A DNA stretch of 64,000 bases, taken from assembly GCA_037951105.1 (NCBI GenBank), contig JBAMJV010004317.1:24929-88928 (forward strand), given 5' to 3'. The stretch comes from Echinarachnius parma (Eukaryota; Echinodermata; Echinoidea; Clypeasteroida; Echinarachniidae). The position numbers and the translations under genes are program-made. The notes below the pieces were generated by a model. The model had not been told where the DNA came from. It saw only the letters and a list, made by a program, of their open reading frames with translations, and did no database searches. Below, piece by piece: positions 23,201 to 50,200 of the stretch (its first letter is position 1; each line of letters starts with the position of its first letter).

Positions 23201-26200
23201 CCAGGTATATATATGTACATGTATATCCTCATTTGGTTATTATGATACAGTTCCAATCCCTGCAATTTGTGGATCTAGAAATCATGATGTATAGTATTGC
23301 ACACTAAGAAAATATGAAAGGTATAAAAGTCCTCCCAAAATGATGTCCGCTACAATGACAATGATGTAATCCAGTAATATACCGGGTGGGCCCCCCCCCC
23401 CCCCAAAAAAAAAAAACGGAACAGGGTACTTTCCATTATAAAGAAACATCAAGACTAGGTTCACTGGAAAGATAGTCTTTTTAAAGGAAATTTTATACCA
23501 AGAACATTAATATTGGTTGAGTAGTTTTTGGTCTAGGGCGTCTTTTATAATGACACCATTTCAAGTTCAAATTTGTGTCAATATCCACGAAGTCTGTGCC
23601 TGGAAAATAGCCATTCACACCCAGCCCTCATAGCATCAAGCAGTGATCAGTACGAATACTATTGTCCATGTGCATTCAGCTGTGAAAACCCAGGTCGGAA
23701 GCGAAGGGGTAACATTGCCAGTGACATGAGGGGCTCACAAACTTGTCCTGTACAGGAATGTGATTGTGCGTGTGACGGTATTTTGATATTCTTTACCTTA
23801 TCAATATATTCTTATCAACTTTATACCAGGTAGGGTGAAGGAGAGGGCAGGGCGATGGAGATGGGGAAAACTTCCTGAATGTTCATCCCCTTCTTTCTTC
23901 CCGTTTACTCACTCCCTCCCATATGCCCCTTCGCTTAAGACCTGGGTTTGTACATCTGGGGGGCGTTGCATAAAACTCGAAGTTGTGTTTGATTTTGCGT
24001 TTGATCAAACGCAAAATCAAATGCTTGCTCGCAATTGACCGTTGCATAAATATCCGGATCAAACGCAACTTTGCGTCTGATCCATAACATAATTTGACTT
24101 GCGTTTGATATCAAACGCAAAGTTTTGTTTGATTTCAAGCTCAAGTCTTTATTCAACAGAGTTGCTTTTAAACGGAAAGTTGCGTTTGATTTTTGGTGGC
24201 TTGCGTCGAAAATCAAACGCAACTTGGCATTTTGAGTTTTAGCAACGCCCCCCTGAATGGACAAAAGCAATTGTACTGATCACTGCTTGATGCTATGATG
24301 GGCGCGAATGGCTATTTTTCAGGCACCGACTTCGTAGAAATTGACAACAATTTGAACCTGATATGGTGTCACTAAAGACGCCCTGAAACAAAAACTTCTC
24401 GACCCAAATTACTGTTCTTGGTATCAAATTTAGTTTTAAAAGATTATCTATCCAGTGAACCTAGTCCTGACATTTCTTTATAATGGCAAGTACCCTGTAT
24501 AGTATTATTATTATTATTGTTATTATTATTATTATTATCATTATTATTATTACTTTTTATCATCTGTGTACATATGTCCATTCTTTACAGGTACAAAATC
24601 AATGCTGTCATGCATGTTTCCGTCACTGAGAATGGTGAGGTCTTTGGAATGATTCCCTTCGACAGGCCCCTGTATGATGACTCTGAGGCTTCCCGCATCG
24701 TTCAAGAGCATGTGCAGAGCACCCTCCTTAGTTTCAATGACTCCTCTGGCCTCGTCTTCGAAGCCAAAGTTGTCAGACCAGATACTAAGTCTGTCAAAAG
24801 CCCATCGAATGCCCTCAAGGTCTCACTTAGTACTGCATGTGTGCGATACCATGGGTTTCGTGATGGGGCGGGTGTCCAAGTGACAGTCCAGCTCTGCGTT
24901 GCTAGGCAACACTTCCTCAACATGCACTTTGCCTTGGATAAGCTTCACTGCATGGAGACGGTGTTACCAAAACCTGACCAGACCGAGAGGTGAGTGTTAT
25001 AAATAAAAATTACTTTCCTTATATGTCTGAAGGTGATTATCTACATTGGCTGCAATTAAGTAACTTTTCCAGGACCATTTGTATCTTATCAAGCTGGCAA
25101 GTAAATACAAATCAAAACGGGTAGTTTGAACATTGATGTAGATTTTATGCACGTTTATATTGTCAAATGATGAAAATAAATGACACATCATTATTCCTAA
25201 CACCTCTGTAATTCTAATCTTCACTTGTGAATGTATATCATCGGCTGAGAGTAAGATGTGCTTTTAGTTGAATTTTGGCTAAATTATACCATCTTTTTGT
25301 AATACCAAATTTGAGATAATTTTTTGGTCTAATTTTATCAACATCAAAAAGTAACATCGAGCTACAGTTGGTTTCTACATGGCTTTCATTCGATGATTTA
25401 TACATGCATGATAACCTCCGAAGTACAAAAAGTGAATTAACGCCCTTCGATTCTTTCTCGACTGATCATGTCTTTAAGGTTTCCAAGTGGTGAGGATAGT
25501 TCCAGTGGGACTAATGGTTGCCTGAACGAGAGACAGGAACAAGCTGCACGTTACATCAGTCAAGTCCAGTCAATTGAGACAGGTACAGACCAGCAGAGCG
25601 GGCCCAGTCTTATCCTGGGTCCGTGGGGGACGGGAAAGACCTACACACTGGCCCAGGCAGTCCAGCGAACCTTCTCACAGAACAGGGATGCTCGTGTCTT
25701 GATCTGCACGCATTCAAACAGGTATGGAAGCGCTTAATTGTGTCTCACTTTTTATGTCGATTGAACTGCTGGAACATGGTTCGTTCATTGGTGTCTCCTT
25801 AAGTTTTCTTCTTGCTAATAGAAGTATGAAATTATTTTTTGTTTTTTTACATTTCTGCTGCGTTATTGGGATATTTAATATGAACAAAATATTTCAACTG
25901 ATATACAAACCTATGTGTGATGAGCTTTCCTTTTCAATAGATTTCATTGTAAAAACACCAAATTAATTGCCAAAATTAAACTTTTCCCTCAATCCTCAAC
26001 TTAGCACGAGGTGGAAATTTGTGCATGTTTTAGCTTTCAGTAAAACAATGCTTGCATGCCTACAAGTTTATTTGTTTACACGTTCCCCCCTCAGTGCTGC
26101 GGATCTGTACATCACTGAGTACCTGGACAAATACTGCGGATCTCGTGAAGCAATGGATGCTGGGGTCCGTATGAGGCGAATCTATCCAGAATACAGAAGG

Positions 26201-29200
26201 TTAAACACGGTTAAAGACACAGTGAGGAAATATTGCAAATATGCTGAGGGGAAATTCTGTGTGCCACGTGAAGCAGAATTGCAAGGTAACGTGCAGCTCT
26301 CCTGAAGATATAGCTATGGAGAAAGGATGTTATACCCAAAATTCAAAAGCATTGAGTCTTGAAAAGAATTTTTAAAACTTGGCTTTTTAATGTTGTTGTA
26401 TAGTTTGTATGAATGATTAGCAGAAGTGCGCTTAGAACAACTATGATAGGTTCAATAACATTATAATTGTTCAGGAATATATTTTTCACATGAAAGGCAA
26501 TGCAATGAATACATCTAGGATTTGTCAAATAAAAGTTAGACTGGGTTTACTAAATGTGTGCCCCCATGTCACTATAGCCCAAAAAGAATGTTAATATTTT
26601 TCCATTGACCCCCGCTTGACAGAATGGGTGCACCCACCGCTGAACAGTTTCAATGCAGCAACAGCTCCTAATGTAGTCCTGACCACACTAAGCACAGCTA
26701 TCCACCTGACAAAGACCAGCACGCTGCAAGGTTACTTCACACACATCATCATAGACGAGGCGGGACAAGCCCTAGAGACGGAGGCCATTATCCCTCTGAC
26801 CCTAGCAACGGAAGAGACTTGTGTGATCCTTGCAGGAGACCACATGCAGATAAACCCAAAGGTATCTATCCACACAAACTCCTGATGAGAACGGTTAAAA
26901 ACAAAATTGTTTCATTAAATTTGTTTTTATAATGCGGTAAATTATTCTGGCTAATTCTTTAAAGGGATCTAGTAACTTTGTTGAGATGTGCAAAAACTGA
27001 TGAATGGTTGATGCAATGTATACTGTTGTTATCTCATATGTCCTCAGGGTATTGTGTGAAAATTTCAGGTCAAATGGACAATGTATGGCCAAGTAATGAG
27101 CGAAAATGCAAAGTGATATTGGGTGATATTCACCAACTCACTGCATTCACTTTGTACAGGGATGAAAATCTCGCCCGGAGATTTTCTTATCTAAATACTT
27201 CAATCATACATATCTTTGTAATGAAAGGGAAACTTGAAAAACCGAAAGCTGTCCCATGATTTTATTGTTAATACGAATACAACAAGGTATAAAGGAACCG
27301 CTAGAATTACAATTTTATTTTGAGGATTTGGACAATGTTACTAAGTCCCTTTAACACAACACAAAGCTATAACATGTGCAGCAGATATTCTTCAAGAAGT
27401 GAGTAAATTGTACCTCAGACATGGTAGCAGTCTCTCAGTGCCAATTTGTGGAATAAATTTTTTGCTCAAGGTATTATGACCTGTTTTATAATCCCCATTC
27501 TACTTCTTCTCATCAACGCCTGTTCAGCATCTACCTGTATATCATTGCCAATGGTATCAGTTTCTATAAGACCTTGCACCCTAACTCTTTGATCTTTCCT
27601 ACCCTAAATCATCTTTAACCTTTCCCTCCAGTTCCAGCCTTGTCTGATTGGCTGCCGACTCTCACTGAAACTGTTTCCATTGTTCAGTGTTTCTGCCTCC
27701 TTTTCCCCCTATTTGCAGATATGTCCATGTGTCTTTATAGTCTACATGTCCTTGTCATGTTTGCCCAGGCAAAGATTCTGCTAGGATAGAAGCTAGGCTC
27801 CTATTACTGTCTCTCAGTTTATAGAGCTAGATTGTAACAATTGATACTCTGTGTATATGCACATATCTTAAATAATTATATTATTAAGTTTTTGTGTGTT
27901 TATTAGATATTAATATGCTTCTTTTATTTGGGCTTTATTGGTTTTAATCTTGTATGTTCATCAATGTATCGATTTTGAGCTTGAACTTTTCTAAATGATT
28001 TTTTTGTTTATCCGAATCCTTTTTTAGGTATATGCACCAGCTGGCAGGGAGGCCAAATTCAACATGTCCCTCCTGCAGCGGTTGTTCTTGCATGGCAGGC
28101 GGAACACCTGCCAATCTGCCTGTCTGTTCACGGAGAACTTCCGCAGTTGCCAACCAATCCTGGACTTCTTGGAGGTCCATTACGATAGATGCCTCAGTTC
28201 AAAATGCCCCGACAGACTGCATCCACGTCGCCAACCTCTCAGGTTTTCCGCAGTGAGTGGGAGGGATGTCCAGGTGGGAGGCTCGTATGTCAACCCCGCG
28301 GAAGCTCAGAAGATTGTTGAGGAGGTCCAGTCTCTTGCATCTGATTGGCCAGTTCAAGAATGGGGGATATTTGTCCCCGGGGACATTGCTGTTCTTTCTC
28401 CATACAAGCCCCAGGTAAACTTGATTTGTTCATTGTGTTTGTGTTTGTTCATTGTGCTTATTCATATGAGGAACTCTGCAATAATGATATTTTTGTTATC
28501 ACTGTGGAAAAGGATGTTTTTAAACGTTTTATGTCATTAAGAAAAATTGTTTTTGCATATTTATAAAGTAACAGACGTTGTTTATGTAATGGTTTTTTCT
28601 TCTGCATTCAGGTGGATCTTATTCGCAAGTTACTCCGCAGTAAAGATCTTCATGAGATCACTGTGGAAACAGTTCAGAATGTGCAAGGTAAACTGAAATG
28701 CAATTTGACATTTTGTTCATCAACTGTTCATGTAACTTACAATTGCCAAATAAAGAGCTGAATTAAATGCTTTACTATAAGATATGACATCAAAACAAAA
28801 GTTCATAGAGCTAGTTCAGGGTTGGTCATGTCCAATAATGACATGTTATAATGCTTTTCTTGTTTTAATTCATATCTTCAGGCCTGCAATTTGTATTTGT
28901 TTTGATAGTTTTTTGTCTTTTAAAATACAAATTTAAACAAAATTATGGTGTAATTAAAGCACTGAATGAACAAAATTATTTATCAAAAATTATACTGCAT
29001 ACTTATTTCATGAAAGCAATATGTTTATAGGGAAGTAACTTTTTGCATTTAACTCATTTCCAACTGCAGGAAGAGAATTCCGTGCAGTATTTCTGAGCAC
29101 TGTGCGGACAAAGTCGTCTCTGAACCAAGTGGACTTCACAACTCTTCCGCAGAGCAAGACGAGGAACGTGAGAAGCCGTTACTGGTACGGGTTCCTATCT

Positions 29201-32200
29201 GATCCCGGCCTTCTGAACACAGCCTTCACGCGGGCCAAATCTCTCATCGTTGTCACAGGAGATCCCTTGGCTCTGTGCTCTTCCGGGGAATGCCAGCGGA
29301 TGTGGATGCGATACATAAGGAAGTGTGAGGTCGGGCACAGCATTGATCCAGTCAAGCTGACGCTGGAAAACATCAAGACAGAGTTGAATACAGCCAGGAG
29401 GTTTCTTTGTCCTAGGTTTAGGGTGTCAACTGCCATGCAAGGTCCTTCAGCAAGTCCCTCTGTAAATATACACCAGCAGATGCCTACATATTGGGCAGAG
29501 GTAGAAAGCTGTTCTCTTCCTCTATCAGAGAAACAATATCCACCCATGGTGGACAGCCTTCACAGTGGTGATGTCAATAGCCATCAGGATGACGAGATCC
29601 TTGCAGCTCTGATAGCCGAACATCAAGGTCAGGAAGGAGTTGAGTTAGATCTGCAAGAGGAAGGTCCTGATGGAGCATTGGCAGCTTGTATTGAGCCAGA
29701 GGCCAAAGTTGTACTCGGAGTGCAGAACATTCTAGTGCAAAATGGAGAGAGATATAGGGTTTTTGATGGAAGTCGGTTCAGTAACCCCAACCATCGGATT
29801 TGGTTCGGTGCAGCAGATGCAGATGTATATGATTCAGATGATGGTGATGATGAGGGTGAGTTGCAGAATGGAGGACAAGACAGAACCGATGATGATCTAC
29901 TCAGATGTACAGTAAACCATCCTAACAGATACAAGATAGCAACCTTCAAGCAAGATGAAAGGGGAAGAATGCTAGCTATTCCGCATGACAGGTGTGCAGG
30001 GGAGAAGATTGTGATCCCCAAAAGAGCTCATCGCGGGCGTGCTTTGCATGGAGAAAAAGTCGTCGTGGAAATCATGAGAGATGATGATGCTGATGAAGAA
30101 GAGGAGCATGAAGAAAATGATCACAATGTTGAAGAAGAGAGTCGAGGGAAAGTCGTAGGTATCCTGAAACCAAATGACATGCGGCTGAAAAAGGTAGTTT
30201 GCAACCTTGATCCATACAGCAATGACCTCATGGTACCACTAGACCCCACCCTTCCTAAAATGAAGATACTAGGGCAAGAAAAGGGAGAAAAGCAGAGCAA
30301 GATACAGATTCCTCTGTATGAAGTGACCGGGGGTAGCACAAGAACAGAAATTAGAATGAATGACAAGGGTTCTGTTCAGGTTACTAATGCCAACAGAGAA
30401 AATACGCTCTTTATTGTTCGGTATCTAGAATGGTTCAAAGGCAACCCATATCCACATTGTGCAGTCATCGGTGAACTGCCTCCTGGCATCACAAAAGAAC
30501 AGGGAATGACTAATCTGAAATTGAAGCACAGTATCAGGGAAGACTCAAGGAATGCAAGGGAACATGTGCAAAGAGAATTTCCTGTAGGTTGGAGTCATTC
30601 CAAAGAGCTTTTCCAGCGAAAAGACCTGCGAGGCAAGGCTGTATTCACAATTTCACCTGAGGGACGTAAAGATATCCCCTTGGGTCTCAGCATAGATCCT
30701 CTTCCTCAAGATTCACACAGAGTTGGCATACACATCTCAGATGTGGCCTACTTTGTAGAGAAAGGCAGTCCAGTGGACAGGGATGCATGCAAGAGAGGCA
30801 TTTCATTCTGCACCTCATCTCCAGATGGGAAGATTCACATGCTTCCAGCAGAGCTGAGTGAGGACTTGTGTAGCATCATTCCGGGTGAGGATAGGCTTGC
30901 GCTGTCGATCTTTGTTGTCCTTGATAAAGATGGCAAAGTGATTGCAGAGCCTTTCATAGAGAGGACCGTTATTCGATCTTTCTTGGATATCTCACCGGCT
31001 GAAGCAGAAAGATTGATTGTGGATGACGACAGGTTGACCGACAGCGGTGACATTGCCATACCAGTCAGGATGCTTGATGAACTCGCCAAGAAACGTTGTA
31101 GAGAACGCCTCGGAAATGAGTGGAGGCAGTTCGATTTTGGTGGTGATACAAATGAGCCCTTCCCAAGAGCCAATCGTTTGATCAGAGAAATAAAACTCCT
31201 TGCAAGTTGTATGGCGGCAGAAAAGTGTCTACGTACATTCCCGGATTGCACTGCTCTTCTGCGGCAACTTCCCCCTGCTGCAGATCAGCTTCAGACATGG
31301 CAGGAGCACCATGGCAGCACTGCTGCTAAGAGTATGATGATTCCTGCATCAGCTGTTGGTAACCAGCCAGGCGATCAAGTTGAAGCTGAAGCTGATATTG
31401 TCATGGGTTCTAAGGCATGGGACGAAATGAAAAGGCTGGCTGATGTAGACACGCTGACGAGACGTGATATGGAAGCTGTTAGGAATGTCTTGCTCAACGA
31501 CATGAACCATCCAAAACAGGCTGTCGCCCTATCAGCATACAGAGCCATCCAAGAACATCCTGAGTATACTGACACAACAAATCGAGCTGACCCTTCAAGA
31601 ACTGCTCATTTCTCTTCTGGATGTCAAGCACTTGCCCCCTGTGTAGACCCTCTAAGCTCAAACATGGCTCTAGTGTTTCAAAGATTACTCATTGAGTCAT
31701 CGAGAGGAGAAGAAGAAGCAGTGTGCCCATACAAACCATCAGAGATGGCGGATATCACCCATCAATGCAACATACAAGTTGAACGCGGAAGAAGGTTCAC
31801 AACTGATGTCCAAATTTTGATGCTCTCCCTTGAACTCATGGAGTCTCCTCGACAGGTGACATCCTATGTAGAGCAGTTAACAGAGACACAGATGAAATTG
31901 ATGTTGCCGTCCTGCTCATACGTTCCTATAAAACATCGCTTCCTGGACTACAGCAAGTTGAAACCAAGTGAGAGGCCGACAGTGAACTCGGAAGGTGTCA
32001 ACATTTCATGGGAGATTCCGTATGTTGATGGGAGACAAGTACTCAACCCAGCGGTTGAGCCTGATTCCTACCCTAAGACATTTTCCATACCAGCAGCCAG
32101 GCGGCAACAATTGCTGAGAGCAATTGAACATGCGAGCAGTGAAGAGACCAGAAGAGCAATTGAAATTGCAGGGCTTCATGGCCAGAACAACCCAAATCCA

Positions 32201-35200
32201 TTCAATGGTCAAGACCCAAACCAAGCTGGAAGAGGTGATGGAAGGAGTGTGCCTCTGCAGCGAATGTTCAAACGAGGGGACCCTTGCAACATCCAGCTTC
32301 ATGCCCAGCTTGTTAGAGGCGAGCTGGTCCCCAAGATACAGACCTTCACCTTGACAGGCTCACTGGATCAATGCATCCACCATCGCAGTGATCCAATTCT
32401 CTGCTTTTCCAGGATTGCCACCAAAAAACCTGGCGACGAGAGGAATATTGAAGAGTACAAAGCGAACTGGAAACCGATCACATCAATGATGTCTGCTCAC
32501 AGCGCCGTCGTGAATGACAACTCGGTCATCCATAAAGATATCCAGATTACTTGGGAGAGGAAGGGTGACATAATCAACGGTTCCTTTCTCATCTCTGCCA
32601 ACTTTTTGCGCAGACTCTTCATTCGCATCTTTGTCAGCAGGGATGACAGGAGTAAGGAGTTGGAATATCTGTGCATCCGCTACGGTATGCTTGTTGAGAG
32701 CGGCGGCAACTCTGACCCCTTCAACCAGGGCATGGGACAACTGTGTGCAGGGGGCGATCAGAGGAAGCAGACCTTTGTAGCTCACTGTCTTGTCACGGAC
32801 ATCAAGGATGACCGCCCGATCACAGACATCAATGACGACCACCCGACTGGTCCACAGGATGCTGCTAAGAGTAAACGGGTCAGGAAGAACCTTTCACCTC
32901 CCTTCGATCTGGACTGCCCTTGGGAAGAGGATGAGGACAGGAAACCTATGACAATTGTGGAGTTCACTGTTCACACAAAGTCTATGCCATTTCCAGGCAT
33001 TCTGCTGACAGGAGAGGGCGGAAAAGGAGCAACAGTAGAGTTCATCCTGAAGCCAGAACCTGACAGGTAACTATCCAAGTTGACATAAATTGCACCTACA
33101 TTACCCGTACATTAAAATACTCCCCAGTAAGATTGGCAAGATTTAAAGTTACTGTTCTCCTTTCACAAGCGAAAATTTGCTAGATTGATCCATGTATATT
33201 TGCTGGATTGATTGTCTTATATGAAAGAAAATTGGGCTCCCTGATGCTCAACCCTGAGACCTTCTGATGCTAAACTGGTGCTCTTACACCGACTGAGCTA
33301 GAAAGCTCCTCTGTTATTTTGTAATGTGAAAGAAAATACAATTCAAGAACTAGTCTGAAAAGATGACGGTTAGAAAATACTTTTAAATTAAACATTTAGA
33401 TCTTGGTACTATCTTGTTACAATCATTTAATTCATCTGGCAACTGCTAGCTGTCCATCATTTTATTTTGTATTTTATACTTCTTATTCACATACCATAAC
33501 TGAACTTATTTTTTATTAAGCACAAGCTGAGCTATTGTTCAATTAGATTTGTCATGTAACAGTGTGCTGCGTATTCAGTTCTCATATTATGCAACTCATT
33601 CGGTTTGAAGGTTTAATCGATCAGATGAAACAAAGGCTCTGAACAATAAAAAAATTATGTTTTTCTTCTTTATAGTCCTGTGTGATCTTTGATTGTTATG
33701 TTACTATCAATCTGATACATTTCCTTTTCCTTTATCAAGGCGTGTTGAGGATGTGATCAACAAGATTGAGCGAGCTTCACCATTGGTCCAGAACATTCTC
33801 CTTCATCCGCAAACGAGACAAGCCCCACAAGGTAGGCCACAATTCTGTTGAAATTGGACACAAATTTTAACCCTGACTTTCTGTCACTGAATGTGATCTG
33901 GAACATAAAACTGGCTAACCCAAATTGCTGATCTGGTTAATATTTGTCTTGATGAAAAATTCCATACCTAGTGAAACCAGTTGGTTTGTTCCTATGTTGT
34001 GGAGCTATTCCGTACTGCTTTGGGGGGCTAACTTGTATCTGTATACTTTCTATACATACATGTAGGTTCTGACGACATCACACGGACCCTGCTCCGTAAG
34101 GCCAGAGAGATGGCTGATCTGCGTGTTGCAGGGACTAGACTCAATCCGCTCAACGAGTCGCAGGCAGAAGCTGTGAGGATGGCTCTCAGAAGCGCCTTCT
34201 CCGTCATCCAGGGTCCACCAGGTTAGTCTGTGATTGGTTGTAAAGTTACGTGGAATATATTAAAGCCCTTACCTACTGGCAATCTTGGTGGTCTAGTGGT
34301 TTATATAATGCTTCTTGTCTAGCATCAAGTGGTCATGGGTTCAATCCCAACCCAAGTTGCTGTGAGATATACCTTCTCTGTCATCTAGGGCCCACCAGGT
34401 TAGTCTGCTATTGGTTTTAATGTAATGTGGAGTATTAAAGCCTTAACCTACTGCAATCTTGGTGGTCTAGAGGTTAATAATTTGTTGCCATAGGGCTGTA
34501 ACCAACAATTCACTTGTATCAATGACTGAATGGTCATATAACATTTAAAATAAGGTTGTTATAAAATATGATATATTAGTATAAGGTTGCCTCTCATTTT
34601 ATTACATAGGTTAGTAGATAAGTAGTGTTCATCAGGATTTTTCGTCATTGTTAATTATTGTTATCCCTCTGTTTGATACCAGGAACTGGCAAGACGGTAA
34701 CGGGTGCATACCTTGCATACTTCTACGCTCAACTCAACAAGCAGCTTCCCACAGGCGGCGATCATCCTCATGTGCTGTACTGTGGGCCTTCCAACAAGGC
34801 TGTAGATGTTGTCGCAGGTATGATAATGAAACATCACTTCTCATCATGTGTAGTAGTAGTAATGATGATGATGATTATGACGATGATGATGGTGATGATG
34901 ATGGTGGTGGTGGTGATGATGTCATCATGTGCTGTATTGTGGGCCTTCCAACAAGACTGTTGTCGTCGCAGGTATGAAACTTTTCTCATCATGTATAATA
35001 CCCAGATAACAATGCTACGTTGGCCCATCGTTGGCCCAATGTAGGCGGTCATGTTGGGCCAACGTCAAAACGTGACGTCTAGCCCACGTCATTCTTGCCG
35101 CTGGGCCCTCGTTGGCCCAACCCCCATACGCCAACGTCAATTGCCAACGTTGAGCCAACGTTTGCCCAACCATTTATTTTGCTATTTCTGACGTCAAGCC

Positions 35201-38200: not shown

Positions 38201-41200
38201 AATGTACTCGGGAGACTATTCACGAAAGCTTATGCGTATATTTATGAACTTAAAGGGATAGTTGATTTCTGGTAAGGAGAGTACAGTTTGGGTGAAACTG
38301 AATTTTAGTAAACAAAACCTACATCATTACATTGCAAACTAATAGTTATAACTAGAAAGGAACACAAAATTCCAAATGACGTAGTAAAAGACCATGTTAT
38401 CATTCAAAAAGAGCCGTTAAAACGTAAGAGGGCGCCTTCTAAAAACTCATCGGTTTCAACCATTTTGAATAAAATAGTGTGCATGTGATGTTTTGTTGAA
38501 ATAGTGATTAGATAGAATTAGATAGAGAAATAACCAACAACTATCAACATACCTTTTTTGTAACTTTTTGAAAAGAGGAAGCATTTTTTTGAATTTTTAA
38601 CGGCTGGTTCCAAATTCTCTAATAAACCGGGGGCCCCAGCTTTATTACAAAATGTTACGTTTATGGATATTTCAGCCGTTTCTGAACCGATTTTGATCAA
38701 ACAAAGATGATTGTATTATTTAGATAGTATGCTCTTTCAAATTTTACACTCAGTTTTTCATTATCTCACAAAAAAAATAAGTAGTCTAGCGCCCTCTCTA
38801 CCAAAACTCAACTACGCCTTTAATTAGGAGTTTGAAAGACCGATTCCAGCGATTACACGGCAATGTGTAAATTTGAATAATTTCGATTTAAAAAGTGTAA
38901 AATTGAGAGAAAATGTTATAATGAATAATAAGTATAATAAGAAGTCTGACGTCAATTAGCCAACTAATTTCCAACACCACTCATTGATTAAATGTTGTAG
39001 TAGGTGAAACGGTGGCCCAACGTTGGCTTGCCTACAGTGTCGAAATGTGGTTGCTTGTCAAATGTTGGTTTGACGTCAACTAGCCAACCACTATCCAACG
39101 CCGCTCATTGACCGAATAGGTAGGCGAAACGTTGGCTTAACGTTGGCTGGCCCACCGTCAAAATGTGGTTGTTTGTTAAAGGTTGGTTTGACGTCAGCTA
39201 GCCAACCAATATCGAACGTCGCTCATTGTCCGAATGTATAGTAGGCAAACGTTCGCCTAACGTTGGCTTGCCCGACGTCGAAATGTGGTTGTTTGTTAAA
39301 GGTTGGTTTGACGTCAGCTAGCCAACCAATATCCAACGTCGCTCATTAACAGAATGTTGTAGTAGGCGAAACGTTGGCCCAACGTTGGCTTGCCCGACGT
39401 CGAAATGTGGTTGTTTGTTAAAGGTTGGTTTGACGTCAGCTAGCCAACCAATATCCAACGTCGCTCATTTACAGAATGTTGTAGTAGGCGAAACGTTGGC
39501 CTAACGTTGACTTGCCCACCGTCGAAATGTGGTTGTTTGTTAAAGGTTGGTTTAACGTCAGCTAGCCAACCAATATCCAACGTCGCTCATTTACAGAATG
39601 TTTATGCAGGCGAAACGTTGGCCTAACGTTGGCTTGCCTACCGTCGAAATGTGGTTGTTTGTTAAAGGTTGGTTTGACGTCAGCTAGCCAACCAATTTCC
39701 AACGTCGCTCATTGACCGAATATTTTCGTAGGCCAAACGTTGGCCTAACGTTGGCTTGCCTTCTGTTGAAATGTGGTTGTTTGTCAAACGTTGGTTTGAC
39801 GTCAGCTAGCCAACCAAAATCCAACGTCGCTCATTTACAGAATGTTGTTGTCGGCGAAACGTTGGCCCAACGTTGACTATCCTACCGTCGAAATATGGTT
39901 GTTTGTTAAAGGTTGGTTTGACGTCAGCTAGCCAACCAATTTCCAACGTCGCTCATTGACCGAATGTTGTAGTAGGCGAAACGTTGGCCAAACGTTGGCT
40001 TGCCCGACGTCGAAATGTGGTTGTTTGTTAAAGGTTGGTTTGACGTCAGCTAGCCAACCAATATCCAACGTCGCTCATTTACAGAATGTTGTAGTCGGCG
40101 AAACGTTGGCCTAACGTTGGCTTCCCCACCGTCGAAATGTGGTTGTTTGTTAAAGGTTGGCTTGACGTCAGCTAGCCAACCAATATCCAACGTCGCTCAT
40201 TAACAGAACGTTGTAGTCGGCGAAACGTTGGCCGAACGTTGACTATCCTACCGTCGAAATGTGGTTATGTATTAAACGTTGGTCTGACGTTAACGAGCCA
40301 ACCAATATCCAACGCAAGTCATTGACACAGTGTCGTAGTAGGCGAAACGTTGGTTAAACGTTAGCCTGCCCACCGTCGACATGTGGTTGTTTGCCAAACG
40401 TTAGTACGACGTCAACTAGCCATCGAATATCCAACGCCACTCATCAACAAAATGTCGCAGTAGGCGAAACGTTGGCCCAACGTTTGTTTTTCGACCAAAA
40501 AATTATGATTGTTCGTCCAACTATCACCCAACGTTGTTTCAACGTACATTTGCCGACCAGTTTGCCAAAAGTCAACAGAAAACGTTGGCGTAACGTTGTC
40601 TTAACGTCAGCTCTCCGACTGCAAAAATGTGGTTGCATATTTACCTTAGGCCAACGTTGGCTCAACGTTGTTTTGCCAACCGCGACGGTGCCGACTATAG
40701 ACTACGTTGGGCCAACGTAGCATTGTTATCTGGGTAGTAGTAGTAATGATGACATTGATGATTATGATGATGATGGTGATGGTGACGATAGTTACAGTTG
40801 TTATATTTAAATAATTATTATGATGATGATAATAATGATGACAACTTTTTATGCCTCTGCCAACGAAGTGGCCGGAGGCATTATGTTTTCGGGTTGTCCG
40901 TCCGTCCGAACGTACGTCCCGTTTTCGTTCTCGCAATATCTCTAGAACTGGTTGACGGATTAATTTCAAACTTGGTATGAGTGTACATATTGGGGTGACA
41001 ATGATCTGATTAGATTTTAGGGGTCATGAGGTCAAAGGTCAAGGTCACTTGACTCAATTTATATGCAAAAATGCCTCGTTCTCGCGATATCTCAAGAACC
41101 GATTGACGGATCAATTTCAAACTTGGTATGAGTGTGCATATTGGGGTGGCAATGATCTGATTAGATTTTGGGGTTCATGAGGTCAAAGGTCAAGGTCACA

Positions 41201-44200
41201 GGACTCGATATATGTGCAAAAATGCCTCGTTCTCGCGATATCTCATGAACTGGTTGACGGATCACTTGCAAACTTGGTGTGAGTGTACATATCGGGGTGG
41301 CAATGATCTGATTAGTTTTGGGGGATCATGAGGTCAAAGGTCAAGGTCACCGGACTCAATATAAATGCGAAAATGGCTTGTAATGGCAAAATTTCAAGAA
41401 CTGAATGTCAGATTTCAATCAAACTTGGTACCTGAATGTATCATAAAGAGTCAACGTAGCCATAAAATGTTGGGGTCATGAGGTTGAGGTCAAGGTCACA
41501 GGACTCATTATACATGCAAAAAAGCTTGTAATGGCAAAATCTCAAGAACTAAATGTCAGATTTCAATCAAACTTGGTACCTGAATGTTTCTTAGGGAGCC
41601 AATGTAGCCATCAAAGCTTGGGGTCATATGGTCAAGGTCACAGGATTAAAAAATAATTCAGTGCATGTTAATTTGGGCTTGATATTTAAATCCTGTGATA
41701 GCGGAGGCATAATTTTCGACTGCGCGCATTCGAAGATCCATCTAGTTTTTACTGATTTACTTATTTTGAAGGCTACTTGAAGAAAATCCCAGGCCTTGCA
41801 GTGGTGAGGGTCTACGGAGAGACACTGGAGCATAAACGGCATCCCATCCCGGGAATACCAGCTCTGGTCCCTAAGTGGTCTAGAGGCGTCGGTGAGGCTC
41901 GCATATCAGAAGAGGTGGAGGATATCTCGCTGCACTACCTCATCAGAAAAGAAGGTGCCCCATATGCAGAGAGAATCAGACGAATGGAAGCAGAGTTGCG
42001 CACCATGATTGACCGTCCCACTTACCACCTTGTAAAGGCATACAAGATGGCTATCTTTGAAGCTACAGTAAGTTTACATTATAGCTATAATAATGATGCT
42101 CATTAGTTCAAGAAACATACTCAAATCAGACGAATGCTAGCAGAGCTGCAAGCCGTTGAACATCCCAGTTACCTGCTCGTAAAGGCGTACGAAACAGTTC
42201 TCTTTGAAACTACAATAAGTTAGTGGAAAAACAATTTGCTATAACGATGCTCATTAATTCAAGAAACATACTCATTTTATCTCTGCACAAAGTGGCCGGA
42301 TCAGAGGCATTGATTATGTTTTCTGTACCTCAGTACATACCTATACACGTAATCAAGATATCTCAAGAGCTTACAAATGATGCACAGGCATGAGTGGATC
42401 GGTAAGAATTGGATGCACGAGTTTAACTTTGGAATGGTTTAAACCCACGAGCGCAGCGAGTGGGTTTTAGACCATTTCCAAAGTTAAACGAGTGCATCCA
42501 ATTCTTACTGATCCATGAAATATGCCTGTGCAGCATTTGTTTTATAAAATGGGCGCGAACAAATTTAAAAATCAGACTTTTTCCCAGTAATGGCTAAATT
42601 GGCTAAAACCCTTTCCAAAGTTAAACTCGTGCATCCAATTCTTACCGATCCACTCATGCCTGTGCATCATTTGTATAATAAGCTCTTGAGATATCTTGAT
42701 TACGTGTATAGGTATGTACTGAGGTACAGAACCGACCCATGCTCTGAGGTACAGAACCGACCATGCTCATTAATTCAAGAAACATACTCATTTTATCTCT
42801 GCACAAAGTGGCCGGATCAGAGGCATTGATTATGTTTTCTGTACCTCAGTACATACCTATACACGTAATCAAGATATCTCAAGAGCTTACAAATGATGCA
42901 CAGGCATGAGTGGATCGGTAAGAATTGGATGCACGAGTTTAACTTTGGAATGGTTTAAACCCACGAGCGCAGCGAGTGGGTTTTAGACCATTTCCAAAGT
43001 TAAACGAGTGCATCCAATTCTTACTGATCCATGAAATATGCCTGTGCAGCATTTGTTTTATAAAATGGGCGCGAACAAATTTAAAAATCAGACTTTTTCC
43101 CAGTAATGGCTAAATTGGCTAAAACCCTTTCCAAAGTTAAACTCGTGCATCCAATTCTTACCGATCCACTCATGCCTGTGCATCATTTGTATAATAAGCT
43201 CTTGAGATATCTTGATTACGTGTATAGGTATGTACTGAGGTACAGAACCGACCCATGGCTTCAAAAGTACCGACCCATGGCTGGGGGAAAATTTGATTTT
43301 CACATTTTTTTTTTTTTTTTTATTCATAAATTTTTTTTATATCAATTTTAAAATTAAAAATTTTGTTTTTAAAATTATATAATATTAAAAAAAAATATAT
43401 ATTTTTTTATGATATAAACAAAATTTATACCAATTTTAAAATATTTTTTTTATTTTTTAAATGATATAAATTAATTTTTTTAAATTTTATTTTTCGATCC
43501 CATGAAATATGCCTGTGCAGCATTTCAAAAATAAAATGAGTGCAAAAAACTGTGAAAATCAAACTAAAGTGAGCCATGCATCAGTACAAAACTTTTACAC
43601 GCTAATTGACCAATAAGAATGCAGGGACTCTTCTACTCATTTTATAACAATGGATAACCAACAAACTTGGTGCCCATATGTATCTTGAGGAGCCAACAAA
43701 CTATTAGACTTTGAGATCATAAAGTCAAAGGTGACAGGGCTCATTATGCAAAAATAGCTCGTAATTGCAATATCTAAAGAACTGGCTTATAGATTACATT
43801 CATGAACCTGTATATTTTGGTTATTTTGGGGTATAGTTACCGTAAGATTTTATAGAAAAGCTTCATATGAAATTATAACTGTGACAAAATCAAATGTTTT
43901 TAAACTAATACCTAGTCTAATTTATTGCATTTTCACATTTAGAAAGAGGTACTTGCCAGACATGACGTTGTGTTGTGCACCTGCCATGCAGCGGCTGCAG
44001 ACAGAATTAAAAAGCACACCAATGTGCTGCAGTGCATTGTGGATGAAGGGGGTATGTGCAGCGAGCCGGTCACTGTATTGCCTCTGGACAAAAATAGTCT
44101 CCGGCAGATTGTCCTAATTGGTGACCATCAGCAGCTCAGGTAAATATGTCCGTCGTGGTGTGATATAATAAAACTGTGAGAACTTTATTTTCTAGATTTC

Positions 44201-47200: not shown

Positions 47201-50200
47201 GCTACTTAGAAAGGGGTGCTGATACGCAGTGTTCTACGGTAATACAATACATATTGAATCATCATGTCGCTTACCTCATTTCAATTTCAACTTGTAGGTG
47301 AGGATCGTGAAGGACATGTTGCGTCGTGGTGTCCATCCTGAACAGATTGCTGTGTTGTCCCAGTACAGACTACAGTGCTCAGAGATACGCAAGGAACTTG
47401 ACCAGACTGGACAGGTCTACAAACGGGTCAAAGTCACCACAGTGGTCAAGAGCCAAGGTGACTTAATCCTTCTCATTCTCTTTATGTCAATTGACGTAAA
47501 CATTAATTTCATATGAGAGTTGATGTGACTTGTGATCCCTCTGTCTGTCTCTCTCCCTTTCTGGTAAAATCATTATAGCTCATCCACAATATTATTTCAC
47601 ATTTGCATATTTTTCACATCTTATTGTGGCATTAATAACAACTTCGTAACTTAAAGATCTCTTATGTTATCATATACATGTGGAGGTTAATACAGGATAG
47701 TTACAAGCTAGTCAACTTAGCATTCCTGCATGGTAAACTAAAGCCTAATTTGTTTTCTTTCTTTCATAGATATTAAAATGTAATTGTATTGTCCTTTGTC
47801 TTCAGGCAGCGAGTGTGATTACGTCATCCTGTCCAACGTGCGTTCCCTGCCGAAGAAGGAGATAGAAGCCAAGCCCAGCAAGGGATGGCAGAACTTCCAC
47901 CTGGGGTTCATCAACGATGAGAACCAGATGAACGTTGCACTGACTCGGGCCAAGCGGGGGCTCATCATACTAGGTACAAAAGACATTACCATACTGTTGT
48001 GTGTAGCTGGCTGTGCATAGAAAATGCATGGGTGGCAGATATCAGCTATAGAGACTCCACATGCATGTCTATGTACTCTGTGCTAAAAAGATATTGTGTG
48101 TGTAGCGTGTAAATGGTATAGCCTAGTGTCTCAGAGTTTACTCTAGGGATATGGCCATTTACATTTGAAATGTAGGTACAAGCACATTTATTGTTTTTTC
48201 ATGCCTCCGCAACTGGCCGGAGGCATTATGTTTTGGGGTTATCTCAAGAACCAATTCACGGATTACCATCAAACATGGTATATTTTACAGTTGTTACTGG
48301 TGGTGGAGGGAAAAGCACGGAATGTTCCACTTCCGAGGGATTTTAAATGCTATTGAGGGAAGAGTAAATAAGTCCTGAGAGGTAGTCGAGGGACTTATTT
48401 TCTTCACGAAATAGCATTTAAAATCCCGAGGGGAACATTCCATGATTTTTGCGACAGCAAAGTTAACAACTGTTTTATCATCTGAATTGCCATGTAATAT
48501 CCAAAAATATTACATGGCAGCTCATGTACTGTATTTACTAAGTCAGGTGATAAATATATATACACTACTCACAAAAAGTAAGTACCCCCCTAGCATTTTT
48601 TCATATATCTCCAAAAATATTTTACCGATTTTGATCATTCAAACGGAAATGGATATGGAATTTTCTTACGCAAAAAATGAATGGTATTTGTCTGCCAATT
48701 GATAGCATTGTTGGTGTGAAATTGTTTGATGACACAAGGGGTGAAAAAAAATCTTGCACTTTTGTAATTTGTGTCAGCTTCTACACAAATAACAAGAGAA
48801 TCATGCATGTTTCTAAAATTTCAAGCACCATTTATTGCATGTCACTCTAACTTTTACTTTTAATAAGCATCACAATTAAAACAGGACATGACTTTGTCCA
48901 CTCTAATCCCCAAAAATGTCATATTGAAAGGCCTATTGTTTCAGAAAAATGCATGCTTTTGGAAAATGGTTCCACTAACAACAATGCAGCAGTAGTACTG
49001 ATTTACATAAAAGATTTGTGAATAAGGCCAATATGGTTGCCATAGAATTGCGTTTTCATCATCAAAATATGTATTTTCTGATACAAAGTGCAAAAAAAAA
49101 GTTGCACAAGTTTAATATGGCATATTGGGTACATTTTGTATACGAGTAAGCATCTTCATTGAAGATGACCCGACACACAAATCTGTAATGTAATTCAGTA
49201 CTACTGCTGCATTGTTCTTACTAGAACAATTTTTTCAAAAGCATATATTTTTCTGAAACAATAAGCCTTTCAATATGAGATTGTTGGGGATTAGAGTGGC
49301 CGAAGTAATGGCCTGTTTTAATCTTTATTGGAATTGGTCATATTCACAAATCTGTTATGTAATTCAGTACTGCTGCTGCATTATTCTTAGTGGAACCATT
49401 TTCCAAAAGCATGTATTTTTCTGAAACAATAGGCCTTTCAATATGACATTTTGGGGGATTAGAGTGGCCGAAGTCATTTCCTGTTTTAATTGTGATGCTT
49501 ATTAAAAGTAAAACATAGAGTGACATGCAATAAATGGTGCTTTAAAATTCAGAAACATGCTTTATTCTCTTGTTTTCATGTAGAAGCTGACACAAATCAC
49601 AAAAGTGCAAGATTTGTTTTCACACCTTTTGTCATAAAATGCATGATTTCACACCAACAATGCCATCAATTGGCAGACACATACCATTCATTTTTTGCAT
49701 AAGAAAATTCCATATCCATTTCCATTTGAATGATCAAAATCGGTAAAATATTTTTTGAGATGCATGAAAAAATGCTAGGGGGTACTTACTTTTTGTGAGT
49801 AGTGTATATCTTGACAAGCTGAAGAGGTAATTAGATTTTGAGGTCAAAGGTCACAGCTAGGACACTATAAATAGTGTGCAATGGCAGAAGCATCCATTTC
49901 AACTGCGTGCAGTCAAAGATCCACCTAGTTACTCATTGAAGTTGATTTGATTTTATTGATTTAATATGCATTCTCCAAACATCCCTGCCCAAATGCTTTT
50001 GGAACCAGTCCTGAACGGGTTGAGCCATTGAAGATGATTTGATTTTAGTATAACGTGCATTCTCCATATAGACCCTATTCAAGTATTTTGGGGACCTGTC
50101 CTAGGCCCTGTAACATGAAGATTTACGATTAATAATGCTAATAACCAATTTATTATAGGATCTATCATGTGATCTCTCAATTGATAGTGAGATCACTTGA

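What the first reader, a model, noticed from the sequence alone, without database searches (positions are those of the whole stretch)
30635..31672. RNB (RNase II-like) module that keeps its fold but has lost its catalytic residues
The RNB signature is clear (KDLRG, GIHISDVAYFV, MLPAELSEDLC). In active RNB enzymes four Asp hold Mg in the TIDP..KDLDDA segment. Here the aligned residues are S1953, D1959, P1961 and L1962, and the later SPIRRY motif reads DPLSSN (S2287, S2288 for the two Arg). Both active-site halves are gone although the 4-kb exon is fully open, which suggests selection for a non-catalytic role such as RNA binding. HELZ2 in vertebrates is a helicase with an RNB module; this may be a pseudo-nuclease branch.
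Basis: partly seen in the sequence, partly recalled or inferred. Interest (0 to 1): 0.72.

Follow-up and report, generated by a model that had tools for sequence, protein, structure and literature searches.

The report
Nuclease-dead HELZ2-type helicase gene
An animal gene built like the interferon-induced helicase-nuclease HELZ2 has lost most known catalytic residues of its RNA-cutting domain while its helicase motifs are largely kept, so it probably handles RNA without degrading it.

Summary
The 4-kb open frame is an internal exon of a HELZ2-type gene: helicase 1, OB fold, RNB, helicase 2. Aligned with 13 paralogous RNB frames of the same genome and E. coli RNase II, the window protein has lost 7 of the 8 active-site residues checked: D201S, D209P, D210L, Y253C, Y313P, E390R, R500S (E. 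coli numbering). D207 is left. All 13 frames keep all eight. A 99% identical copy on another contig shows the same losses. The frame is open with splice signals, unlike a decayed paralog that has stops but keeps SPIRRY. Helicase motifs are kept, except DEGG for DEAG in helicase 2. Constraint has dropped in the RNB but not in the other regions compared (z = -3.3).

Best reading: an RNase-dead, helicase-competent HELZ2 paralog whose RNB survives as scaffold or RNA-binding module. Pseudonucleases of this superfamily are known from fungi (Ssd1); my searches found none described for HELZ2. Not shown: expression, RNA binding, conservation in other species, or the fold (models were poor). dN/dS supports past coding constraint but cannot date the loss.

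The parts
25441..25721 (+). helicase 1, exon with Walker A (GPWGTGKT); the start is the open frame's, not a mapped splice site; the end is a GT donor read by eye
   Evidence: AAA_11 E 7.2e-08; motif read
26595..26882 (+). helicase 1, open frame with Walker B (DEAGQ) and GDHMQINP
   Evidence: AAA_11 E 1.2e-14
28028..28540 (+). helicase 1, AAA_12 first part (open frame)
   Evidence: AAA_12 E 1.7e-10
29070..33066 (+). long internal exon: end of helicase 1 (FTRAK), acidic linker, OB, RNB, post-RNB region
   Evidence: open frame; acceptor TGCAG and donor AG|GTAACT; donor phase as in the 10 paralogs printed
29885..30172 (+). OB_HELZ2 domain (PF25049)
   Evidence: 51.9 bits, cut-off 29.3
30590..31918 (+). 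RNB domain (ORF aa 518-960, bounds set by the paralog alignment), catalytically degenerate
   Evidence: PF00773 145.1 bits over ORF aa 527-758; paralog alignment
30653..30682 (+). metal-site segment SPEGRKDIPL in place of DPPDSxDLDD (S539, D545, P547, L548)
30809..30811 (+). C591 at the place of RNase II Y253
30995..30997 (+). P653 at the place of RNase II Y313
31184..31186 (+). R716 at the place of RNase II E390
31646..31663 (+). DPLSSN in place of SPIRRY (S873 at R500)
34066..34221 (+). helicase 2, exon ending in ...QGPPG (first half of Walker A); acceptor could instead be at 34106
34683..34850 (+). helicase 2, exon starting with the rest of Walker A (TGKT); end approximate
   Evidence: AAA_11 hit at C4315:59607-59768
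43943..44140 (+). helicase 2, Walker B (DEGG; the 8 paralogous loci inspected have DEAG) and GDHQQL
47784..48017 (+). helicase 2, motif VI open frame (NVALTRAKRGLIILG)

Best explanation
The window carries a HELZ2-type gene whose RNB exoribonuclease has become a pseudonuclease. The protein keeps two superfamily-1 helicase modules around the RNB module but cannot hold the catalytic metal pair (three of four Asp gone), clamp the 3' end (Y253, Y313 and E390 gone) or support cleavage (R500 gone). Most likely it still loads on RNA and works through its helicases (remodelling or translational repression of viral or transposon RNA), with the RNB module kept as a scaffold or RNA/protein-binding surface, beside about a dozen paralogs with intact nuclease motifs. 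Shown here: architecture, residue losses, open frame with splice signals, helicase motifs, RNB-specific drop in constraint. Inferred: absence of nuclease activity, helicase activity, any role in defence.
For: 13 of 13 paralogous RNB frames keep all eight residues; the window and its near-identical copy keep 1 of 8. Catalytic positions are lost more often than other invariant ones (1 of 8 against 97 of 162 kept; p = 0.011; with E. coli included 1 of 8 against 36 of 60, p = 0.019). Helicase 1 has GPWGTGKT, DEAGQ, GDHMQINP and FTRAK; helicase 2 has GPPG-TGKT, DEGG, GDHQQL and ALTRAK. Of residues invariant in 12 paralogous frames the window keeps 127 of 268 in RNB (C334: 170) but 192 of 292 in the other three regions compared (C334: 181); heterogeneity z = -3.32. 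Random mutation to 42% amino-acid identity leaves about 40 stops (minimum 28 in 20 runs); there are none. Human HELZ2 with three Asp changed to Asn loses RNase activity in vitro but generally changes LINE-1 restriction less than two-fold, whereas Walker mutants, those of helicase 2 above all, lose more (PMC9839780, section 12 read), so a helicase-only HELZ2 is workable. Ssd1 has S/V/E/F at the four Asp sites and is inactive (PMC8934651, section 23 read).
Against: No biochemical or expression data. D207 is kept. The RNB second half is diverged enough that Pfam does not align it and the models are poor, so a folded module is not proven. The two genomic copies show 7 nonsynonymous and 3 synonymous differences, which does not demonstrate present constraint. 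Helicase 2 Walker B reads DEGG, a departure from the paralogs' DEAG, so helicase 2 might be altered too. The join from the RNB exon to helicase 2 is not settled.
Confidence: 0.62

Rival explanations
1. Domain drift: the gene is used only for its helicases and the RNB part is decaying passively, with no retained function, while the frame stays open because helicase 2 lies downstream.
For: RNB retention is specifically reduced, most in its second half (51 of 122 invariant positions kept; C334 keeps 77). Downstream helicase 2 would select against stops and frameshifts in the RNB part even if the RNB itself were useless. The two genomic copies differ by 7 nonsynonymous and 3 synonymous changes.
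Against: 97 of 162 non-catalytic invariant positions are still kept; RNB omega about 0.11 with omega = 1 rejected by 30.7 log units, although the branch mixes time before and after the loss. OB and post-RNB parts are about as conserved as in C334 (57 against 59 of 89; 76 against 66 of 126).
Confidence: 0.27
2. Recent pseudogene: the whole gene is dead and has not yet picked up stops.
For: Only 10 codon differences separate the two copies, 7 of them nonsynonymous, so a very recent death could not be seen.
Against: Seven separate catalytic replacements, open frame in both copies, kept splice signals and helicase motifs; a really decayed paralog (C3693) shows another pattern, stops and frame breaks with SPIRRYIDLVVHR intact (its metal-site segment was not among the matched pieces).
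Confidence: 0.06
3. The site still works with substitute residues (as Dss1 tolerates Glu at one Asp).
For: D207 is kept; Dss1 has a conserved Glu in its signature (PMC8097288, section 6 part 1 read).
Against: Ser, Pro and Leu replace the other three Asp, and Y253, Y313, E390 and R500 are lost as well; no shifted acidic cluster in the alignments.
Confidence: 0.03
4. Assembly or consensus error.
For: One genome only.
Against: Two contigs (C4315, C1489) agree at all eight sites and differ elsewhere, including about 5.9 kb more between the RNB frame and helicase-2 Walker B in the window copy (my arithmetic from coordinates).
Confidence: 0.02

Closest known systems
HELZ2 (vertebrate interferon-stimulated helicase with RNB domain)
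   Same: helicase 1 - RNB - helicase 2 order, HELZ2 OB-fold domain by Pfam, helicase motifs
   Different: human HELZ2 has the Asp residues and 3'-5' RNase activity that is lost on mutating them (PMC9839780, section 12); the window protein lacks three of the four Asp
Ssd1 / Sts5 RNase II-family pseudonucleases of fungi
   Same: loss of the metal-binding Asp in an RNB domain that persists in an intact gene; both have Ser at the first Asp
   Different: Ssd1 descends from Dis3L2, has cold-shock and S1 domains and (recalled) no helicases; channel-blocking inserts and RNA binding are known there (PMC8934651), untested here
DIS3L2 / DIS3
   Same: nearest solved structures by sequence (DIS3L2, E 4.8e-26)
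   Different: active 3'-5' exonucleases without helicase modules of their own (recalled)

Membership tests
HELZ2-type helicase/RNB proteins | two SF1 helicase modules flanking an RNB domain | tested here: met
   AAA_11/AAA_12 hits on both sides of the RNB exon; motifs; exon joins only partly checked
HELZ2-type helicase/RNB proteins | HELZ2 OB-fold domain (PF25049) | tested here: met
   51.9 bits, cut-off 29.3
HELZ2-type helicase/RNB proteins | N-terminal zinc-finger region | tested here: inconclusive
   no zinc-finger hit in the upstream open frames scanned (10 frames, 2; not all upstream frames were scanned); first exons not mapped
active RNase II/RNB exoribonucleases | RNB domain by profile (PF00773) | tested here: met
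   145.1 bits, cut-off 29.3, profile positions 1-242 of 326 only
active RNase II/RNB exoribonucleases | four metal-site Asp | tested here: not met
   S, D, P, L
active RNase II/RNB exoribonucleases | Arg of SPIRRY/SPIRKY, Tyr253, Tyr313, Glu390 equivalents | tested here: not met
   S, C, P, R
active RNase II/RNB exoribonucleases | 3'-5' RNase activity in vitro | not testable with these tools
   needs protein
Ssd1-type pseudonucleases | descent from Dis3L2, no helicase modules | tested here: not met
   helicases present; closest relatives in the genome are HELZ2-type paralogs
Ssd1-type pseudonucleases | loss of metal-site Asp | tested here: met
   Ssd1 residues from PMC8934651
Ssd1-type pseudonucleases | blocked RNA channel and RNA-binding outer surface | not testable with these tools
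   models too poor (mean pLDDT 51.6)

The most novel reading that the evidence does not exclude
A metazoan pseudonuclease branch of the HELZ2 family: a stable RNase-dead member that regulates, competes with or guides the many paralogs with intact nuclease motifs in the same animal, i.e. an effector family in which decay and holding (helicase or binding) have been split between paralogs.
Probability: 0.3. Interest if true: 0.65.

Novelty: new variant of a known kind. Interest (0 to 1): 0.46.

Why it matters
RNase II-family pseudonucleases are described for fungi; the metazoan Dis3L2 homologs examined in that survey keep the active-site signature (PMC8097288, section 6 part 1). A HELZ2 branch that lost the nuclease by itself would be an independent loss in an animal, and a natural counterpart to the human finding that the helicases matter more than the RNase for LINE-1 restriction. 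It makes the open question 'what is the RNB of HELZ2 for?' testable with a natural separation-of-function protein and its paralogs with intact motifs from one genome.

Tried and rejected
Structure: two AlphaFold runs (window RNB module and active-type paralog C9741; 11 of the 15 frames in hand in each alignment, C1489, C2898, C3792 and C4630b left out as near duplicates) gave mean pLDDT 51.6 and 52.5. Foldseek on the window model put Dis3L2 first (E 8.4e-20) but with TM 0.27. I do not count this as evidence that the fold is kept.

Allele dN/dS: 3 synonymous and 7 nonsynonymous differences; too few to use. Codon model (6 of 15 frames): some branches ran to the upper bound of length (window in the OB and helicase parts, C334 in the RNB and helicase parts), so only the window RNB and post-RNB estimates are used, as rough. 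Net charge of the RNB: window -15, the 13 others -6 to -21, nothing special.

Trees: the flank tree joins window and C334 with full local support; the RNB tree with E. coli leaves C334 and E. coli together at 0.52, so it does not resolve the root. That the loss fell on the window branch rests on parsimony.

Literature: searches; listings seen, and only the best 20 of 6,941 and 20 of 37 were listed. None of the listed titles reports an inactive HELZ2 RNB; most subscription papers are not held, so this is weak. A paper on human HELZ2 as an RNB exoribonuclease (recalled) is not held.

Caveat found late: paralogs recombine among themselves, so 'invariant in 12 or 13 frames' overstates independent conservation; C334 and E. 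coli serve as outside checks.

Full report
What is there. The finding lies in a stop-to-stop frame of 1343 codons, window 29039-33070, plus strand. The real exon is most likely 29070-33066: it starts after an AG acceptor (CTGCAG) and ends at a GT donor, and the apparent stop codon is part of the donor. The donor keeps the phase seen in the 10 paralogs printed. Pfam finds the end of helicase 1 (AAA_12), the HELZ2 OB-fold domain (PF25049, 51.9 bits) and RNB (145.1 bits) in this exon. Upstream frames carry AAA_11/AAA_12 with GPWGTGKT, DEAGQ and GDHMQINP. Downstream, a second helicase is spread over exons from 34066 to about 48017, with GPPG-TGKT joined across an intron, DEGG, GDHQQL and ALTRAK. 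How the RNB exon joins helicase 2 is not settled: a direct join to the acceptor at 34066 is out of frame, one to an AG at 34106 is open, and a short stretch at about 33.7-33.8 kb resembles one in C334 and may be an exon between them (by eye). The architecture is that of HELZ2. The mitochondrial COI of the same genome has an AAA codon where I recall Asn as conserved (one informative AAA codon), with AGA = Ser and TGA = Trp; this hints at an echinoderm or hemichordate, weakly. The species is not known.

Active site. A PF00773 search of the same genome (1.2 Gb, 14,790 contigs) gave 13 places besides the window locus with a nearly full RNB profile (reaching 322 or more of 326) in frames of 1345-1474 codons, plus a near-identical copy of the window frame on contig C1489, a partial copy, a decayed copy and exon pieces that look like the DIS3 family (the last label is inferred). 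Aligned with these and with E. coli RNase II, the window protein has S, D, P, L at D201, D207, D209, D210; C at Y253; P at Y313; R at E390; S at R500 (the roles of these E. coli residues are recalled, the letters were checked on NC_000913.3). All 13 paralogous frames have D, D, D, D, Y, Y, E, R. The two copies of the window gene agree. The 13 are not 13 independent genes: C3306 and C3792 are identical in protein to rounding, C4630a and C4630b 98%, C4101b and C2898 94%.

Is it more than chance? In the RNB domain (ORF aa 518-960), of positions invariant in the 13 frames the window keeps 97 of 162 non-catalytic and 1 of 8 catalytic ones (Fisher p = 0.011); adding E. coli, 36 of 60 against 1 of 8 (p = 0.019). 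So the site is preferentially erased, not just caught in general divergence.

Where has constraint dropped? Taking positions invariant in 12 frames (without C334), the window keeps 59 of 77 in the helicase-1 end, 57 of 89 in the OB part, 76 of 146 and 51 of 122 in the two RNB halves, and 76 of 126 after the RNB. C334, about equally diverged but with an intact site, keeps 56, 59, 93, 77 and 66 (the linker aa 130-270 was not included). The drop is specific to RNB (log odds -0.66 against +0.16, z = -3.32, p = 0.0009). Recombination among the 12 inflates their invariance, but the comparison of window and C334 uses one common set.

Is the gene alive? The frame is open in both copies. Random mutation of an active-type paralog down to 42% amino-acid identity leaves about 40 stops; the real identity to the 13 is 34-40% with no stop. 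A six-sequence codon model gives omega 0.11 for RNB on the window branch, and omega = 1 costs 30.7 log units. This is rough: the branch is near saturation and mixes time before and after the loss, so it shows long coding constraint, not constraint on the dead domain. The two copies differ by 3 synonymous and 7 nonsynonymous changes, which says little either way. As a contrast, the HELZ2 copy on C3693 is clearly decayed: in-frame stops and broken frames, while SPIRRYIDLVVHR is still readable (its metal-site segment was not among the matched pieces). The window shows the reverse pattern, which is that of a pseudoenzyme rather than a pseudogene.

How it most likely works. With three of the four metal-site Asp, the 3'-end contacts and the Arg gone, hydrolysis is very unlikely. 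In human HELZ2 a triple Asp-to-Asn mutant loses RNase activity in vitro but generally changes LINE-1 restriction less than two-fold, while helicase mutants, helicase 2 above all, lose more (the helicase 1 Walker A mutant was nearly as good as wild type in one of two cell lines; PMC9839780; passages and section 12 read). A natural HELZ2 with helicases and no nuclease is therefore workable: it could bind and remodel target RNA, or block it, without decay. The RNB could serve as scaffold between the helicases or as RNA-binding surface, as Ssd1 does after losing its site (S/V/E/F at the four Asp; PMC8934651, abstract and section 23 read). The main rival is passive decay of the RNB part inside a gene kept for its helicases; present data cannot separate the two, because helicase 2 downstream would by itself keep the frame open.

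What is new. RNase II-family pseudonucleases are known from fungi, with at least four losses in Dis3L2; the metazoan Dis3L2 homologs examined in that survey keep the signature (PMC8097288; abstract and part 1 of section 6 read). The text I read does not mention HELZ2. My searches listed no report of an inactive HELZ2 RNB (two listings were capped), within a library that lacks most subscription papers. I rate it a new variant of a known kind.

Limits. One genome; no expression data; no orthologs; structure models with mean pLDDT about 52 for both the window module and the active-type control, so 'keeps its fold' is plausible from sequence but not shown.

Noticed in passing
L021 (C4101a) and L022 (C9741), RNB frames: Mosaic paralogs: C4101a is 92-97% like C4101b over alignment columns 0-900 (and only 45-63% like C242 over columns 300-700) but 45-75% like C4101b and 88-95% like C242 after column 1100; C9741 switches partner similarly. 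Suggests recombination or gene conversion among the HELZ2 paralogs.
   Followed up: partly
own genome, contigs C242, C334, C1521, C1535, C2898, C3306, C3792, C4101, C4353, C4630, C9741: HELZ2-type genes are expanded to 13 full RNB frames (fewer loci if some are alleles), one decayed copy (C3693) and one partial copy beside an intact one (C242).
   Followed up: partly
window 43943-44140: Helicase 2 Walker B reads DEGG in both copies, where the 8 paralogous loci inspected read DEAG.
   Followed up: partly
window 38947-41640: Large minisatellites (122-bp unit, 12.6 copies; about 150-bp unit) between helicase-2 exons; the C1489 copy is about 5.9 kb shorter between the RNB frame and helicase-2 Walker B. 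Whether the repeats explain the difference was not tested.
   Followed up: no
own genome, contigs C1853, C8703, C8722, C11954, C14324: A separate set of AAA_11 helicase frames of 1305-1897 codons with the match in one open frame, four of them on C1853.
   Followed up: no
L031 (C14600): Mitochondrial COI reads with TGA = Trp, AGA = Ser and probably AAA = Asn (one informative codon), the code type of echinoderms and hemichordates (code assignment and COI consensus recalled).
   Followed up: partly
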